Source: Prochlorococcus sp. AG-355-N16 (GTDB lineage Bacteria; Cyanobacteriota; Cyanobacteriia; PCC-6307; Cyanobiaceae). Taken from it: 64,000 nucleotides of DNA. The stretch spans positions 1-64,000 of the forward strand of contig QCEF01000006.1 in NCBI GenBank assembly GCA_003278545.1, in the 5' to 3' direction. The notes below the pieces were generated by a model. It searched no databases. It worked only from the letters and a program-made list of their open reading frames with translations, and had not been told where the DNA came from. The translations under genes were made by a program, and so were the position numbers. Shown piece by piece: positions 4,081-12,608 of this stretch. Position 1 is the stretch's first letter. Each line of letters opens with the position of its first letter.

Positions 4081-4308
4081 TGGAATTACCTTTTTTCTTT
4101 ATATTCTCTTTATTTTCTTTAAAATCAAGTCCCTTAATTTAAATTTTGGTTAAATTTTCTACTTGCATAAAAAAGAGCTAGGTCTGCACTCCTTAAAAAA
4201 GTGGTCAAATAGTGGTCAAATGTTGCTTAAATTGTCCGGACAAGTCACGCAGAATTAAGCAAAAAATTTGCTATGGCTTGAAAACCTAGTGCTGAACTAT
4301 AGCTGTTT

Positions 4309-4355
4309 AGTGCTTTGGGAGCACTAGGTCGCAGGTTCGAATCCTGTCGCCCCGA
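4309..4355 (+). repeat. Partial tRNA-Pro(TGG) 3' half, att-like copy 1
   Basis: AGTGCTTTGGGAGCACTAGGTCGCAGGTTCGAATCCTGTCGCCCCGA: anticodon stem-loop with TGG, T-arm, 3' acceptor strand; no 5' half upstream. Confidence 0.85.
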
Positions 4356-4360
4356 TCAGT

Positions 4361-4440
4361 TATAGCAGTAAGTCTCAGCTAATAACAAAAAACACCATAA
4401 AAAGGTTGCACCCAAAATGCACCCAAATTGCACCCAAAAG
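4361..4440 (+). repeat. Subterminal repeats: TATAGCAGTAAGTCTCAG plus 3x TGCACCCAAA
   Basis: Direct reading; same motifs recur at 5681-5796. Confidence 0.75.
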
Positions 4441-4560
4441 TTATGTTCTCCAAAATAGTTGGCATAACTTTAGAAGTAAATTTGGTATTAGGTTCTGTCC
4501 GACTTGGCGTAACTTTAAAAGGGGTTTTCTGTCGTCCCTTTTTTTGTCTATTATTAATTT

Positions 4561-4809
4561 ATGGAGAAATTTACTCTTATAAATAAGTTCAGATCAAGAA
4601 TTAAAGTCTTTGAACCATTTGAAAATGTTTCCAAGCCTTCGCCATCTATTGATGCAATGATGATTTCTTACGGCTGTGTTTATAAGAGAAGTAGTAAACC
4701 GGTTATGAAAGGTAGCAGGGTAGAGACTATAGAAGCTGCAAGAAAAGAATATAAGCAACTTTTAGATGAAGGTTGGAAGAAGACTTCTATTTTTAGAAGT
4801 TATTTTTAA
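4561..4809 (+). CDS. Hypothetical protein, 82 aa
   Basis: ORF in the segment between att-like copies 1 and 2. Confidence 0.55.
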   Translation: MEKFTLINKFRSRIKVFEPFENVSKPSPSIDAMMISYGCVYKRSSKPVMKGSRVETIEAARKEYKQLLDEGWKKTSIFRSYF

Positions 4810-4947
4810 AATTTTTGCTATAAATTAATTGAGGCCAAACCTCATCAGCACACTCTACGTTTGCTGCAAGACATAGATTGATTCAATATAGTTGCGAGTC
4901 GATTTAATAACCCTTTCAGTAGTTGGAATTTCTGGAGGGGTTTCTTG

Positions 4948-5079
4948 TTACTGATATTTATTGAGTAATCGATTATAAATTATGAACAAAACTATTAATC
5001 CGCCAATACCATAAGCTGCATGAGTTGGGTCATGATGATCCTGCCAAAGCTCTTGTAGTGGGAGTAGTAAGCTTTTCAA
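4948..5079 (-). CDS. 43-aa small TM protein (TTG start) MKSLLLPLQELWQDHHDPTHAAYGIGGLIVLFIIYNRLLNKYQ
   Basis: Hand translation; starts right after the stop of the upstream small ORF; C-terminal half resembles the 37-aa family. Confidence 0.5.
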   Translation of the reverse strand: MKSLLLPLQELWQDHHDPTHAAYGIGGLIVLFIIYNRLLNKYQ

Positions 5080-5202
5080 TTAATAATTAACTAATTTTCT
5101 TTTTCCATCTCTAATTTCTACTTTATTTATTCTTAACCCAACAAAAGCAGCCCAAATAACTGCAAAGAGAACTGGTAAGAAAATGATTGCAAGTTTCATC
5201 AT
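5080..5202 (-). CDS. 40-aa small TM protein MMKLAIIFLPVLFAVIWAAFVGLRINKVEIRDGKRKLVNY
   Basis: Hand translation; hydrophobic segment followed by a basic tail. Confidence 0.5.
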   Translation of the reverse strand: MMKLAIIFLPVLFAVIWAAFVGLRINKVEIRDGKRKLVNY

Positions 5203-5274
5203 TGGCTTAATCCTAATTATTTGCTCAAAAGAATAACCTTTAAATAAATAGGAAAAAATAGGTACTTTATCTAA

Positions 5275-5559
5275 TTAAGCAGCATCATATTCTTCATCTT
5301 CAAGCTCTCTCATAAATCTTTTATCTAATATGTAAGCGTCTAAAAGCTCTGCTGCCATCAGTATCTCAGGAGCATTTTTAGATGCTTCTTGTGGATCTTT
5401 GTCTAATAAGTAATTGTCTAAAAGCTCTAGATTGTTATTTTCTTTAATTTCTTTATCGCTGTCTAGTAGCTCTTTTATGTAGTTATATACAAGCTTTTTA
5501 TCGTACCCACTTTCTCTAATTTCTTTCAACATTTCGATTGGAATTTTCATAATCGTCAA
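5275..5559 (-). CDS. Hypothetical acidic protein, 94 aa
   Basis: ORF. Confidence 0.55.
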   Translation of the reverse strand: MTIMKIPIEMLKEIRESGYDKKLVYNYIKELLDSDKEIKENNNLELLDNYLLDKDPQEASKNAPEILMAAELLDAYILDKRFMRELEDEEYDAA

Positions 5560-5680
5560 CCCCTATGAGAAAGCCTATATACACATACTTACGAAAAAAT
5601 AAGGAAAAAGCTAGTCTTTAGACCATTGATGGGGAACTAATCCACCTAATGCAGGTAAATTATATTTTGTATCTTTCTAA

Positions 5681-5796
5681 AATGCACCCATAATGCACCC
5701 CAAAATGCACCCAAAATGCACCCAAAATAAGGCTTATTAGTCCAAATCAGTCCATACTTATTACTCTAAAAGTCCTTTTATAGCATTAAGTCTCAG
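5681..5796 (+). repeat. Subterminal repeats: 4x TGCACCC direct repeats then TATAGCATTAAGTCTCAG
   Basis: Direct reading; same motifs in reversed order relative to the att-like copy at 4309. Confidence 0.75.
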
Positions 5797-5815
5797 TAAT
5801 ATCCTTGTTTTAGCG

Positions 5816-5862
5816 AGTGCTTTGGGAGCACTAGGTCGCAGGTTCGAATCCTGTCGCCCCGA
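5816..5862 (+). repeat. Partial tRNA-Pro(TGG) 3' half, att-like copy 2
   Basis: 47 bp identical to 4309-4355. Confidence 0.85.
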
Positions 5863-5886
5863 CTCAATCAAATCCAAGTCATACTT

Positions 5887-5911
5887 GCGAGTTACCCAGA
5901 CTCGCTTTTTT
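5887..5911 (+). terminator. Rho-independent terminator
   Basis: GCGAGT TACCCAG ACTCGC TTTTTT. Confidence 0.7.
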
Positions 5912-6061
5912 ATTATTTGTTGTCTCATATTAAGAAAAGGTAGCTAGAGGGGTAGCCAAAAACTTATTAAAACGACTTAAGTATAATTATTTTTTATTTT
6001 TTAAACCAAAATGCATAATTTTATAAATAAAAATATACTTAAAAGGAGTAATTTAATTTAA

Positions 6062-9000
6062 GTGTCCAATTATAGATTTTCTCAAATTGGTTCTGATATA
6101 GATGGAGAGGCCTTATTTGATTACTCTGGTAATACTGACACAGGTGAAGTTGGATCATTAAGTATATCTGCAGATGGATCTATTGTTGCTATTGGAGCAA
6201 GAGGTAATGATGGGAATGGAGATAATTCTGGGCATGTAAGGATTTATCAAAATAATAATGGAACTTGGGAGCAGATTGGCAGTGATATTGATGGAGAAGC
6301 AAATGGAGATGGTTCAAGTGTTATAAGTATTTCTGATGACGGGTCAATTGTTGCTATAGGAGCTTCTGGCAATGATGGGAATGGAGATAATTCTGGCCAT
6401 GTAAGAATTTATAAAAATAACAATGGCACTTGGGAACAGATTGGCAGTGATATTGATGGAGAAGCGAGCGGAGATAGTTCTGGATCCTCTCTCAGTCTTT
6501 CTGCAGATGGCTCAATAGTTGCTATTGGGGCATATGGTAATGATGGGAATGGTTCAAATACAGGACACGTAAGGCTTTATAAAAACAATGGTGGAACTTG
6601 GGAGCAGATTGGCAGTGATATTGATGGGCAACAACCTTATGATGATCAAGGTAGTTTTGGAGTTCGATCTGGGTTTTCAGTAAGTCTCTCTGATGATGGA
6701 ACCGTTGTTGCAATAGGTGCTCAAGGATGGGATGACTACGACGGTTACACTCATGGTGAAGTTCGAATTTATGAAAATAACTCAGGAACTTGGCAGCAAA
6801 TTGGTAGCATAATTGATGATATTAGCGACGACGACAAGACTGGAGAGAGAACTTCCATCTCGGGAGATGGAACGGTATTAGCCGTATCCTCTTGGTCAAG
6901 GGGTCTAGTACGTATTTATGAAAGATCAGGAAGTAGCTGGAACAAAACCAAAGAATTTTCAGGTAGCTCTGGCTTCGGTTACTCCGTTAGTCTTTCTGAA
7001 GATGGTTCAGTGATAGGGATTGGGTCTTTATATACAGACAATGAAAAGGGGTCAGTTTATGTTTATAAGAAAAATAGTGGGACTTGGGAATCGGTTGGAC
7101 AAATTGATGGAGAGGCAAATTATGATCGGTCAGGAAGTTCTGTAGAAATATCTGATGATGGTTCCACTATTGCAGTAGGTGCACCGTGGAATGACGGAGG
7201 TGGTAATAAATCTGGTCATGTTCGGGTTTATAATACTGGTTTTGCTAGTTTCACTGGTAGCCCTTTAACTGGTTCAATTTCGCAAGGGTCAATTTATGGA
7301 ACATATGAGGGTGAGGGAGGAGAAAATGCCATTAAAGATTTCAATCTAATTGACAACTCTGGAAATAACACTATAAATGCAACAAATAAGATTGATTCAA
7401 ATCTCTATTATTATTCTTTTGCAATAGATAGTTCTGATATTCAGACGGGTGATGGAAATGATACTTTTAATATTAAAAATTATAGAGGTTACTATGCCAT
7501 TGGATTAAAGGACTCAAAAATTAGTACTGGAGGCGGTTCAGATCAAATTAATATTGATTTGCTTGAAAATAATTTCTATTATGGTGCGTTTGCATTAGAA
7601 GATAGCGAAATAAATACAGGATCAGGAGATGATGAAATAGTAATTAATGTTACTAGTAGTAAAAATGATGCATTTACTTCTTACGTAATAAAAAGTTCAA
7701 AGATTGAGTTAGGCGATGGCAATGATAGCTTAATAATAAATAAAGAAAATTCTTCATCAAATCTTGATATTGCTATTTCTGGAGAGATAAGTAATGCCGT
7801 TGAGTATGAATTTGGAGCAGGAAATGACACAGGAACTTTTACTTCAGAAGGATATGGATTAAAAGGTAGTGATAGCGTTACACATAAAGTAACCTTAGGG
7901 GAAGGGAATGATATCTTTACAATTAATGCAAACTATTCCGCTTTATATAAATCCAATCTTTTTGCAGATAGTGGGGAAGACCAAATAAGATTAACTTCAT
8001 CAAGTTCACTTTTTTATGGTATTGATGATAGCAATATTTATTTAGGCAGTAATGATGATGTGATTACTGTTGATAGCTCAAAAAATTCAGTAATTTATGG
8101 CGGTTCAGGTTACGATGAGCTGGTAATTCTTGATAATTATAGTGAATTCATCTTAACAAATAACCAAGAAAGTACCGCAACGATTACAAAAAATAATGAT
8201 GGTTTTTATAAATTATATGTTAACGGTATTGAGAAGTTATCTTTCAACGACAAAACTATATTTTTTGATTCAATTGCGCCAACAATTTCTTCATCTTCCC
8301 CTACAGATGATGCCACGGATGTGACGACAACGAGCAATATTGTTCTCAATTTCTCAGAAGTTGTTGATGTAGAAAATGGTAATATCGTCATCTATAACGC
8401 ATCCAATGATGTGGCAGTAGAGACTATTGATGTAACCAGCAGTCTAGTTACAGGTACTGGATCTACTCAAATCACAATAAATCCCAGCAGTGATTTAACA
8501 GAATCCACTTCTTATTATGTACAGATTGCAGCCACTGCTTTCGATGATTCCTCCAGCAATTCCTATGCAGGCATAAGCGATAAAACTTCTCTCAGTTTTA
8601 CAACCTCTGATGAAACATCTCCCATAACCGATGTAGAAGAAGTAGTTTCCTCTCCTACCTATAGAATTTTTACTTCTATAAATGTTCCTCAAGAAAATTA
8701 TTTATTAACTACAACTGCACAAACGAGTAATGTTTCTGTTGGAACAAAATTATATTGGTCTTTAAGTGGAGATGGCATTAATCTCGCAGACCTCGCATCT
8801 GGATCTCTTACTGGAGAAGGGACTGTGGGGAGCGATGGTTCTTTTAGTTTTGAACATTTACTGGCTGATGATGGAGAGACAGAAGGTTATGAAACTATAG
8901 ATATCAAATTATTTTCCGATAATTCTTTAACTAATCAACTAGGTATAACTAAATCACTTCTAATAAGAGATTCAGCGGTGACACAAAAGCTTGCAGAGAT

Positions 9001-9589
9001 TAATAGTCAACTCAATTCAATCAAGGAACTTTTAACTCAGGGGAAAGAATATACTCTTTTAAATATTAGAGATTATGATGGTAATCTGCATGCGAATGAT
9101 GAAGAAGTTTCTGAAGAAATTAAAACTTCTTATAAATATCAAGGATTATTAGATGTAAATAAAGATGGGACAAAAGAAGCTATCTATACAAATAAAGAAA
9201 GTAGTCGTTGGGCTACATCTTCTGTTAATTCAATAACTGGATTAACTGATTATTCAGATTATGGGAAAGGGGGAACGACGCGTATTGTTGGGATTTATAT
9301 TGACCCATTAGTAACTTCTGGTGATGTTGTTCAATTTAGTGATCATGATAGTCAATATAGATTTCAAAATGACTTGCAAATTGATAATTTATTTGCAAAA
9401 ACTGCTGGTGATTTTGACGGAGATGGGTTTCAAGAAGTGTATTGGAAAACAGCTGACGATAGTGCATATTTGAGAGCTCTTATGCATGCAGACGGAAATA
9501 TCCAATATGCAAATTATCAAAGTCAAGAACAAATGAGTAACTATTTAACTAATAATGGATATGAATCTGTTATTAGCGATATTCTTTAA
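6062..9589 (+). CDS. 1175-aa secreted protein: FG-GAP-like propeller repeats, degenerate RTX-like repeats, SbsA/Big_5 Ig-like domain, Calx-beta-like module, shared C-terminal module (copy B)
   Basis: GTG start; repeated 'GTWEQIGSDIDGE…ADGSIVAIGAxGNDGNG…GHVRIY'; 'TGDGNDTFNI', 'LGEGNDIFTI', 'YGGSGYDEL'; C-term from ~9050. Confidence 0.85.
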   Translation: MSNYRFSQIGSDIDGEALFDYSGNTDTGEVGSLSISADGSIVAIGARGNDGNGDNSGHVRIYQNNNGTWEQIGSDIDGEANGDGSSVISISDDGSIVAIGASGNDGNGDNSGHVRIYKNNNGTWEQIGSDIDGEASGDSSGSSLSLSADGSIVAIGAYGNDGNGSNTGHVRLYKNNGGTWEQIGSDIDGQQPYDDQGSFGVRSGFSVSLSDDGTVVAIGAQGWDDYDGYTHGEVRIYENNSGTWQQIGSIIDDISDDDKTGERTSISGDGTVLAVSSWSRGLVRIYERSGSSWNKTKEFSGSSGFGYSVSLSEDGSVIGIGSLYTDNEKGSVYVYKKNSGTWESVGQIDGEANYDRSGSSVEISDDGSTIAVGAPWNDGGGNKSGHVRVYNTGFASFTGSPLTGSISQGSIYGTYEGEGGENAIKDFNLIDNSGNNTINATNKIDSNLYYYSFAIDSSDIQTGDGNDTFNIKNYRGYYAIGLKDSKISTGGGSDQINIDLLENNFYYGAFALEDSEINTGSGDDEIVINVTSSKNDAFTSYVIKSSKIELGDGNDSLIINKENSSSNLDIAISGEISNAVEYEFGAGNDTGTFTSEGYGLKGSDSVTHKVTLGEGNDIFTINANYSALYKSNLFADSGEDQIRLTSSSSLFYGIDDSNIYLGSNDDVITVDSSKNSVIYGGSGYDELVILDNYSEFILTNNQESTATITKNNDGFYKLYVNGIEKLSFNDKTIFFDSIAPTISSSSPTDDATDVTTTSNIVLNFSEVVDVENGNIVIYNASNDVAVETIDVTSSLVTGTGSTQITINPSSDLTESTSYYVQIAATAFDDSSSNSYAGISDKTSLSFTTSDETSPITDVEEVVSSPTYRIFTSINVPQENYLLTTTAQTSNVSVGTKLYWSLSGDGINLADLASGSLTGEGTVGSDGSFSFEHLLADDGETEGYETIDIKLFSDNSLTNQLGITKSLLIRDSAVTQKLAEINSQLNSIKELLTQGKEYTLLNIRDYDGNLHANDEEVSEEIKTSYKYQGLLDVNKDGTKEAIYTNKESSRWATSSVNSITGLTDYSDYGKGGTTRIVGIYIDPLVTSGDVVQFSDHDSQYRFQNDLQIDNLFAKTAGDFDGDGFQEVYWKTADDSAYLRALMHADGNIQYANYQSQEQMSNYLTNNGYESVISDIL

Positions 9590-11148: not shown

Positions 11149-11193
11149 GTGCTTTGGGAGCATTAGCTCACAAGTTCGAATCCTGTCGCCCCA
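11149..11193 (+). repeat. Degenerate tRNA-Pro 3'-half copy 3
   Basis: GGTGCTTTGGGAGCATTAGCTCACAAGTTCGAATCCTGTCGCCCCA. Confidence 0.75.
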
Positions 11194-11336: not shown

Positions 11337-12608
11337 CTAAACAATATCGCTGATAACAGATTCATATCCATGACCAGTTAAGTAATCACTCATTTGAGTT
11401 TGGTTCTGATAATTTGCATACTGGATATTTCCATCAGCATGCATTAAAGATCTTAAATAAACATCCCCATCATTGGTCTTCCAATACACTTCCTGAAAAC
11501 CATCACCGTCATAATCACCAGATGCTTTTACAGAAAGATTGTCATAAAGTAAATCATTCTGAAATCTGACCTGACTGTTAAGTGCTAAACGATCAATAGT
11601 TTCTCCATTTACAACCAGATAACGGTCAGATCCCTTTGCTCCAAATTGACAAGGAGCTGGAGTTACTCCATCATTCAAAAATCCACCATTTGAATTTCCT
11701 ACTGCAATTAATGGGTCATCATAAATACCAACTACTCTTGTTCCACCACCTTGTCCATAATCTGAGTAATCGATTTGACCAGTAACAGAATCTATCTTTC
11801 CTGCTGCCCAACGACCACTAACTTTATTTGTATAGATTGCATCCAATACTCCGTCATTATTGACATCTAATTTTCCTTGATACTTATAGGAGTTTTTTAA
11901 TTCATCAGAGACACTACCAGAATTAGCATGTAAGTTACCATCAAAATCTTGAATACCTTTAAGGAAATAGGAGTTGCCGGTGGTGTGATTGCCAATATTT
12001 TCGAGATTCCATATTTCTTTAAGTGCTTGCAAATCAACATCTTGATACCACCTCATTACTTGGCCGTTGTAATCATCATGCCACCCCATGACAGTTGGAG
12101 ATCCAAAACTTTCTGAAGGAGATGAGAATGCTGCATCCCCATCAGAATTATCCCAAGGATGTTCTAATCCCAAAAGATGACCAAGCTCGTGAATAAAAAC
12201 TTTTTTCCATGATTCTTCTGACATATTTGATGAAGGAATATCACCTGTCATTGTTATGTGCACTGGATTATTGTATGAAGGATTCCATTGCCCCCCGACA
12301 GCATATCCGTCCTCAAGATTATGAATTAATATTGGTGCATCTGCCTCGGCTAATGAATTGACTTCTTTAATTTCTAACGCCAAAAATTGATTTAATTTAG
12401 AAATTGTTTCTCTAATGGCTGAAAATTGTGCTGTAGTCGGAGATATTGTTGTTGTATTTACTTGGTAACCTAATTCACTACTGTAAATAGACCAATTATC
12501 GCCACCTGGAGAAATATATAATTTTATTGTGTGGTCATTGCCAGCCCATAAATTTATATCATCAATTTCTGACTGAGACATTATTAAATCTCTGGCTAAT
12601 ATTGTCAA
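11337..12608 (-). CDS. Secreted zinc metalloprotease (HELGHLLGLEH) with shared C-terminal module (copy C, long subtype)
   Basis: HExxHxxGxxH and downstream VMGW Met-turn-like motif; C-term aligns with the family. Confidence 0.85.
   Translation of the reverse strand: MTILARDLIMSQSEIDDINLWAGNDHTIKLYISPGGDNWSIYSSELGYQVNTTTISPTTAQFSAIRETISKLNQFLALEIKEVNSLAEADAPILIHNLEDGYAVGGQWNPSYNNPVHITMTGDIPSSNMSEESWKKVFIHELGHLLGLEHPWDNSDGDAAFSSPSESFGSPTVMGWHDDYNGQVMRWYQDVDLQALKEIWNLENIGNHTTGNSYFLKGIQDFDGNLHANSGSVSDELKNSYKYQGKLDVNNDGVLDAIYTNKVSGRWAAGKIDSVTGQIDYSDYGQGGGTRVVGIYDDPLIAVGNSNGGFLNDGVTPAPCQFGAKGSDRYLVVNGETIDRLALNSQVRFQNDLLYDNLSVKASGDYDGDGFQEVYWKTNDGDVYLRSLMHADGNIQYANYQNQTQMSDYLTGHGYESVISDIV

What the first reader, a model, noticed from the sequence alone, without database searches (positions are those of the whole stretch)
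4309..5862. Putative ~1.5 kb integrative mini-element bounded by tRNA-Pro 3'-half direct repeats
Identical 47-bp tRNA-Pro(TGG) 3' halves at 4309-4355 and 5816-5862 flank a segment with matching subterminal motifs inside both ends: att–TATAGCAGTAAGTCTCAG–TGCACCCx3 on the left and TGCACCCx4–TATAGCATTAAGTCTCAG–att on the right. This resembles core plus arm sites of a tyrosine recombinase. No recombinase is inside, so it would be a non-autonomous element carrying small ORFs (82 aa, 94 aa and two small TM peptides). Further short repeats (GTGGTCAAAT x2, 4201-4221) lie just outside. Tycheposon-like biology is a plausible frame.
Basis: partly seen in the sequence, partly recalled or inferred. Interest (0 to 1): 0.72.

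Follow-up and report, generated by a model that had tools for sequence, protein, structure and literature searches.

The report
Hitchhiking mini-element beside proline tRNA fragments
A 1.5-kb stretch of a Prochlorococcus chromosome has the complete DNA ends of a tRNA-targeting mobile element but no integration enzyme, and its ends match those of larger virus-satellite-like elements that do carry one, so it probably moves by borrowing their enzyme.

Summary
Segment 4356-5815 is a real unit between two identical 47-bp tRNA-Pro(TGG) 3' halves; closely spaced TGCACCC pairs occur nowhere else in this 1.65-Mb genome. It is one of 189 such modules I extracted from tandem tRNA-Pro arrays in Prochlorococcus. 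Modules typically carry an 11-12-bp-spaced repeat at each end; where both ends have one, the motif agrees in 82 of 107 modules (about 9 expected), with 24 different motifs.
I found a candidate enzyme: a divergent ~400-aa arm-binding tyrosine recombinase ("IntPro", my name), inside the right end of 28 modules and beside phage attP sites. An autonomous element with the same two end types lies in P. marinus MIT 9401 (7.2 kb, VapE plus IntPro); another IntPro of that class has CGCACCC repeats, one base from the window's motif. Homology between genomes breaks at att edges, and TGCACCC modules have varied neighbours, twice directly behind the intact tRNA-Pro gene.
Best reading: a non-autonomous element recombined by an IntPro integrase from elsewhere, a satellite counterpart of streptococcal CIMEs. 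Excision was not shown, no strict empty site was found, and no integrase with exactly TGCACCC repeats was found.

The parts
4309..4355 (+). Left att core: tRNA-Pro(TGG) 3' half without its 5' half
   Evidence: 100% identical to 5816-5862; matches the intact tRNA-Pro on C16; homology to other genomes breaks here
4361..4378 (+). Left subterminal motif TATAGCAGTAAGTCTCAG (class-A left end)
   Evidence: shared with the autonomous MIT 9401 element, L260:4888-4920, 94%
4407..4435 (+). Left arm array: TGCACCC x3 at 11-bp spacing
   Evidence: 38 of 73 left-end alignments stop at 4420-4439, just past the arms
4561..4809 (+). Cargo ORF, 82 aa, weakly DUF1651-like (below cut-off)
   Evidence: a clear DUF1651 protein lies in the MIT 9401 element
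4948..5079 (-). Cargo ORF, 43 aa, hydrophobic stretch
   Evidence: no Pfam match
5080..5202 (-). Cargo ORF, 40 aa, hydrophobic stretch
   Evidence: PsbY only at E=0.036, not accepted
5275..5559 (-). Cargo ORF, 94 aa, unknown function
   Evidence: no Pfam or PHROG match
5683..5723 (+). Right arm array: TGCACCC x4 at 11-12-bp spacing
   Evidence: 24 of 38 right-end alignments begin at 5700-5709, the last two arms
5779..5796 (+). Right subterminal motif TATAGCATTAAGTCTCAG (class-A right end)
   Evidence: the same end lies between arms and att next to IntPro genes in L258 and L260
5816..5862 (+). Right att core: tRNA-Pro(TGG) 3' half
4201..4308 (+). Right end (class B) of the left neighbouring module, arms GTGGTCAAAT x2; outside the element
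5863..5957 (+). Left end of the right neighbouring module: terminator-like hairpin (5887-5911) and GGTAGC x2 (5939-5944, 5951-5956); outside the element
   Evidence: the same kind of sequence follows the intact tRNA-Pro

Best explanation
Segment 4356-5815 is a non-autonomous integrative mini-element in a tandem array of elements at tRNA-Pro(TGG). The two tRNA 3' halves are core (strand-exchange) sites. The TGCACCC repeats, one helical turn apart just inside each end, are arm sites for the N-terminal arm-binding domain of a tyrosine recombinase of a family I call IntPro. The element has no recombinase; an incoming satellite or phage with an IntPro of fitting arm specificity (class A, close to the CGCACCC enzyme) would excise and integrate it in trans. 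Shown: the anatomy, end-matching of arms over many modules, IntPro genes beside the same class of end, exchange of modules at att edges. Inferred: binding of TGCACCC by an IntPro, movement in trans, spread in virus-like particles.
For: TGCACCC arrays only at the two ends. Arm motifs at the two ends of 179 modules agree far beyond permuted partners: mean longest shared word 9.31 vs 2.46, sd 0.28; with arms called independently at each end, 82 of 107 agree vs 9 expected, 24 motifs; tandem repeats found in 139 of 184 left ends vs 3 of 121 internal windows. IntPro in 28 of 189 modules, typically starting 114-177 bp from the att with the arms in between. Class-A autonomous element with the same two end types, 7170 bp, in MIT 9401; class-A IntPro with CGCACCC x2. 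End class clusters on the IntPro tree: 14 changes vs 47.3 shuffled. Tyrosine recombinase fold with an N-terminal strand-strand-strand-helix region. Homology breaks at att edges. TGCACCC modules have varied neighbours and twice follow the intact tRNA-Pro directly. A 22-mer of the repeats was found in 2 viral contigs, both flanking a tRNA-like 3' end beside an unrelated integrase.
Against: No circular form or strict empty site seen. No IntPro with exactly TGCACCC arms found. The only IntPro at E<=1e-20 in the own genome has other arms, GTGGGAAAA. Only two class-A IntPro genes were examined. Related modules are not independent, so permutation figures overstate the number of independent events.
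Confidence: 0.78

Rival explanations
1. Stranded remnant: it once belonged to a class-A integrase element, lost its integrase, and now moves only together with an element that integrates beside it (cis-mobilization), or not at all.
For: No class-A IntPro was found in the own genome. Many modules lack IntPro: 161 of 189. Some class-A modules have decayed arms at one end. Streptococcal CIMEs are held to move in this way (PMC7563491).
Against: Both arm arrays and both cores are intact here, and arms still match in 70% of modules without IntPro. TGCACCC modules without IntPro occur in about 20 of 266 genomes with varied neighbours.
Confidence: 0.3
2. Homologous recombination between the repeated tRNA fragments, not site-specific recombination, shuffles the segments.
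For: 47-bp identical repeats can recombine, and the islands are mosaics with breakpoints also inside modules.
Against: It does not explain end-matched arm motifs, their helical spacing, or IntPro genes beside the arms.
Confidence: 0.1
3. The TGCACCC repeats are iterons for a replication initiator rather than arm sites.
For: Short tandem repeats at about 11-bp spacing are also typical of iterons (own knowledge).
Against: They lie at both ends at similar distances from the core, and in autonomous modules between integrase start and att.
Confidence: 0.05
4. The widespread 389-aa Prochlorococcus recombinase encoded elsewhere in the chromosome (C4:128261), a distant relative of IntPro, moves all these modules.
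For: It resembles the attP-linked phage enzymes (E down to 8e-13, 21-25% identity) and a 389-aa form recurs across the genus.
Against: One arm-binding domain would not be expected to read two dozen arm motifs, while end classes follow IntPro clades. Its branch is very long (2.7 changes per site).
Confidence: 0.05

Closest known systems
CIMEs and microCIMEs of streptococci (cis-mobilizable elements)
   Same: att-bounded, recombinase-less, in tandem with integrase-bearing elements; cargo forms of 1.2-13 kb and gene-less forms of 130-220 bp (PMC7563491) parallel the 1.5-kb element and the 144-172-bp shells here
   Different: Autonomous relatives here are satellite-like (VapE or head protein), not conjugative as in streptococci; at least 24 arm motifs; trans rather than cis movement is proposed
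Tycheposons of Prochlorococcus
   Same: Same genus, integration at tRNA genes, tyrosine recombinase, satellite and cargo forms (abstract from memory; PMC10872708)
   Different: Described as 4-200 kb with a recombinase (PMC10872708); this is 1.46 kb without one. Whether IntPro belongs to the published recombinase set is unknown
Picocyanobacterial integrase family cluster158946 (language-model study)
   Same: Divergent tyrosine recombinase missed by standard profiles, in picocyanobacterial islands (PMC10187409)
   Different: Reported upstream of tRNA-Phe or tRNA-Cys, not tRNA-Pro; sequences not compared
Phage satellites with VapE primase or capsid genes (PICI, P4, VEIME type)
   Same: The MIT 9401 element has integrase and VapE in 7.2 kb; the own-genome element has IntPro, an excisionase-like, a helicase-like and a major head protein
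   Different: The window element has none of these genes

Membership tests
CIME (cis-mobilizable element) | Retains att sites at both ends | tested here: met
CIME (cis-mobilizable element) | Lacks recombination and transfer genes | tested here: met
CIME (cis-mobilizable element) | Derived from an ICE or IME (conjugative parent) | tested here: not met
   The parents found are satellite-like, with VapE or a head protein; no conjugation gene was sought systematically
Tycheposon | Own tyrosine recombinase | tested here: not met
   None inside 4356-5815
Tycheposon | Integrated at a tRNA gene | tested here: met
   tRNA-Pro(TGG) 3' halves at both ends; related TGCACCC modules directly behind the intact gene
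Tycheposon | Size 4-200 kb as cited in PMC10872708 | tested here: not met
   1460 bp
Tycheposon | Recombinase of the published tycheposon lineage (for the partner enzyme) | not testable with these tools
   Paper and sequences not held
Arm-binding tyrosine recombinase (for the partner enzyme IntPro) | Catalytic fold and conserved Arg, Lys, Arg and Tyr | tested here: met
   R251, K277, R355, H356, Y387 invariant in ten phage copies; fold matches Tn1549 integrase, XerH, integron integrase
Arm-binding tyrosine recombinase (for the partner enzyme IntPro) | N-terminal arm-binding domain of three strands and a helix | tested here: met
   Strands 32-37, 40-47, 50-59 and helix 65-80 in the model, mean pLDDT 81.9; form as described in PMC8138268. 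DNA binding not tested
Integron gene cassette | attC-type structured site and integron integrase | not tested
   The boundaries are tRNA 3' halves and the enzyme has an arm domain, so this was not pursued

The most novel reading that the evidence does not exclude
Prochlorococcus tRNA-Pro islands are a two-component cassette system. A few satellites or phages supply IntPro integrases, while many small recombinase-less cassettes carry only end units whose arm motif acts as an address for one enzyme. Arm motifs diversify together with the integrase arm-binding domain, so each enzyme moves its own set of cassettes, and cargo-less shells can take up new cargo.
Probability: 0.3. Interest if true: 0.8.

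Novelty: new variant of a known kind. Interest (0 to 1): 0.64.

Why it matters
Many variable genes of the abundant ocean photosynthesizer Prochlorococcus sit in islands beside tRNA genes, and how small cargo moves there is unclear because most modules hold no recombinase. This gives a specific mechanism with a readable signature (the same arm motif at both ends), a candidate enzyme family that Pfam covers weakly, and a named strain in which to test it. The arm motif may predict from sequence alone which cassette belongs to which integrase.

Tried and rejected
Long recombinase family A1 (409-444 aa): in 27 of 266 genomes; where a tRNA was detected in the locus it was tRNA-Asn or tRNA-Ser, never inside tRNA-Pro modules; rejected as the mover. 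The 321-aa-class PF00589 proteins (open frame 359) mostly sit beside tRNA-Tyr/Thr. One IntPro (L218) was not found in 50,697 isolate phage records. Class-A IntPro and the exact att-plus-left-end string were not found in IMG/VR. Right-neighbour search for an empty site: no other genome holds that junction. Empty-site searches from the tRNA-proximal TGCACCC modules of G095 and G222: no other genome matched the first; for the second, G089 holds the same downstream module at 94% behind a different upstream module, with the att as boundary. No metagenome scan was available. The tycheposon and VEIME papers were not held. A first reading of GTGGTCAAAT as part of this element was dropped: it belongs to the left neighbour.

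Full report
Where it is. The window is the first 64 kb of an 83-kb contig (C6) of a 1.65-Mb genome in 23 contigs, 95% complete. Class-A integrases from genomes of the same genus were matched in a named collection to Prochlorococcus records, so I take the genus to be Prochlorococcus or a close split of it.

The observation. The 47-bp tRNA-Pro(TGG) 3' halves at 4309 and 5816 are identical. The one intact tRNA-Pro gene I found is on contig C16, followed by a terminator-like hairpin of the kind that also follows the right att. TGCACCC arrays are confined to the two ends: 7 of 8 window copies, and all 5 spaced pairs in the genome. Ten other tRNA-Pro 3'-half remnants, some degenerate, lie on C4, C16, C17, C19 and C21 and at 11149 and 14092 of the window, next to other short repeats.

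A genus-wide pattern. Stretches fetched around these repeats from relatives gave 189 unique modules between consecutive same-orientation atts: median 2.1 kb, 28 with IntPro (2.1-13.7 kb), 161 without (median 1.8 kb). The longest word shared between the two ends averages 9.3 against 2.5 for permuted partners, with a maximum of 3.5 in 5000 permutations. Calling the tandem repeat at each end without looking at the other gives 82 of 107 agreements against 9 expected, mostly at 11-12-bp spacing, and 24 motifs that share no 6-mer. Within end classes A, B and D agreement also beat permutation; class C, with 7 modules, did not. Related modules are not independent, so the number of distinct motifs is the safer figure. 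Examples: TGCACCC, TCACGCAAA, GTGCCCAA and TTCCCTCAAA in class A; GCCGTCAA, GTGGACAAA and GTGGTCAA in class B; GGGGAGCTAG and GGGATCT in class C; TTAGCGATTA and TGAGCGAG in class D.

The enzyme. PF00589 finds one recombinase in the own genome, a 389-aa protein on another contig. A 37-bp piece of the att found 20 stretches in viral contigs; most carry it without the tRNA 5' half, with a pair of short repeats beside it and a ~400-aa integrase starting about 100 bp away. This family, which I call IntPro, scores below the Pfam cut-off. A profile of ten of them finds relatives at E<=1e-20 in 76 of 266 genomes, including C16:1350-2513 of the own genome. Most IntPro genes examined begin 114-177 bp from a tRNA-Pro 3' half with the arms in between; one group lies 224-245 bp upstream of the intact tRNA gene, and two copies adjoin what reads as a different tRNA. 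End class is clustered on the enzyme tree, 14 changes against 47.3 shuffled. The model has a tyrosine recombinase fold and an N-terminal region of three strands and a helix; arm-binding domains have this form (PMC8138268).

Integrase-bearing relatives of the window element. L260 is Prochlorococcus marinus MIT 9401. Its 7170-bp element has the left end TCAGTTATAGCAGTAAGTCTTAGC, TTCCCTCAAA x3, a VapE protein, a DUF1651 protein, an IntPro of 412 aa, TTCCCTCAAA x2 and the class-A right end. L258 (uncultured AH-287-O17) has a 64%-identical IntPro with CGCACCC x2, one base from TGCACCC; its contig ends before the left att. Between these two enzymes the first 72 columns are 45% identical, columns 73-215 76% and the rest 63%, as expected if the arm-binding part changes with the arms, but this is one pair only.

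Mobility. Alignments to other genomes stop at the att edges: 46 of 61 begin at 4306-4311, 28 of 38 left-flank alignments end at 4355-4356, and 24 of 62 end exactly at 5862. Some loci in that count overlap, so these are not independent events. End units are conserved while cargo changes just past the arms. TGCACCC modules have varied neighbours; in L127 and L135 one follows the intact tRNA-Pro directly. The module downstream of the L135 one is found at 94% in G089 behind another module. Shells of 144-172 bp consist of the two end units around a single arm array.

Mechanism. Inferred steps: an IntPro of fitting specificity enters with a satellite or phage, binds arms at both ends, recombines the two cores to excise a circle, and integrates it at another tRNA-Pro 3' half. 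Intact, matched arms favour movement in trans over movement in cis, but neither has been observed.

Comparison. The nearest described parallel is the CIME and microCIME series of streptococci (PMC7563491), with conjugative rather than satellite parents. Tycheposons are the nearest system in the same genus; the window element itself fails two stated features (own recombinase, size). From memory, repeated tRNA-Pro fragments in Prochlorococcus islands have been reported before; I could not check this, nor whether arm motifs have been described.

Noticed in passing
L035-L051: The cargo pair 5076-5576 also occurs at 85-89% identity in loci without an att within about 1.5 kb, so this cargo may be host-derived.
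   Followed up: partly
L015:1202-9857 (C16 of the own genome): An 8.66-kb tRNA-Pro module with IntPro, an excisionase-like, a helicase-like and a major head protein, arms GTGGGAAAA: a candidate capsid-bearing phage satellite in the same genome.
   Followed up: partly
L065:89-249, L125:1342-1513, L278:16369-16512: Cargo-less shells of 144-172 bp made of the two class-A end units around one arm array.
   Followed up: partly
4356-5815: Inside the module, homology to other genomes breaks again at gene edges (about 4561, 4809, 5076-5080, 5274, 5614), so the cargo itself is a mosaic of gene-sized pieces; no mechanism was found.
   Followed up: no
252-896, 6062-9589, 11337-12608 and L015:10080-11486: Proteins in neighbouring modules share a similar C-terminal stretch (...DFDGNLHA...YKYQGLLDVN.DGTKEAIYTNK...); one is a 1175-aa FG-GAP/Ig-like protein.
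   Followed up: no
C4:128261 (L014:835-2001): A widespread 389-aa recombinase, distantly related to IntPro, of unknown role.
   Followed up: partly
L219:6048-6280, L220: Viral contigs of 59% GC with TGCACCC x2 on both sides of a tRNA-like 3' end beside an integrase with no clear similarity to IntPro: apparently convergent arm motif.
   Followed up: partly
L264, L265, L287, L308, L309: IntPro genes placed 224-245 bp upstream of the intact tRNA-Pro gene, unlike the other IntPro genes.
   Followed up: no
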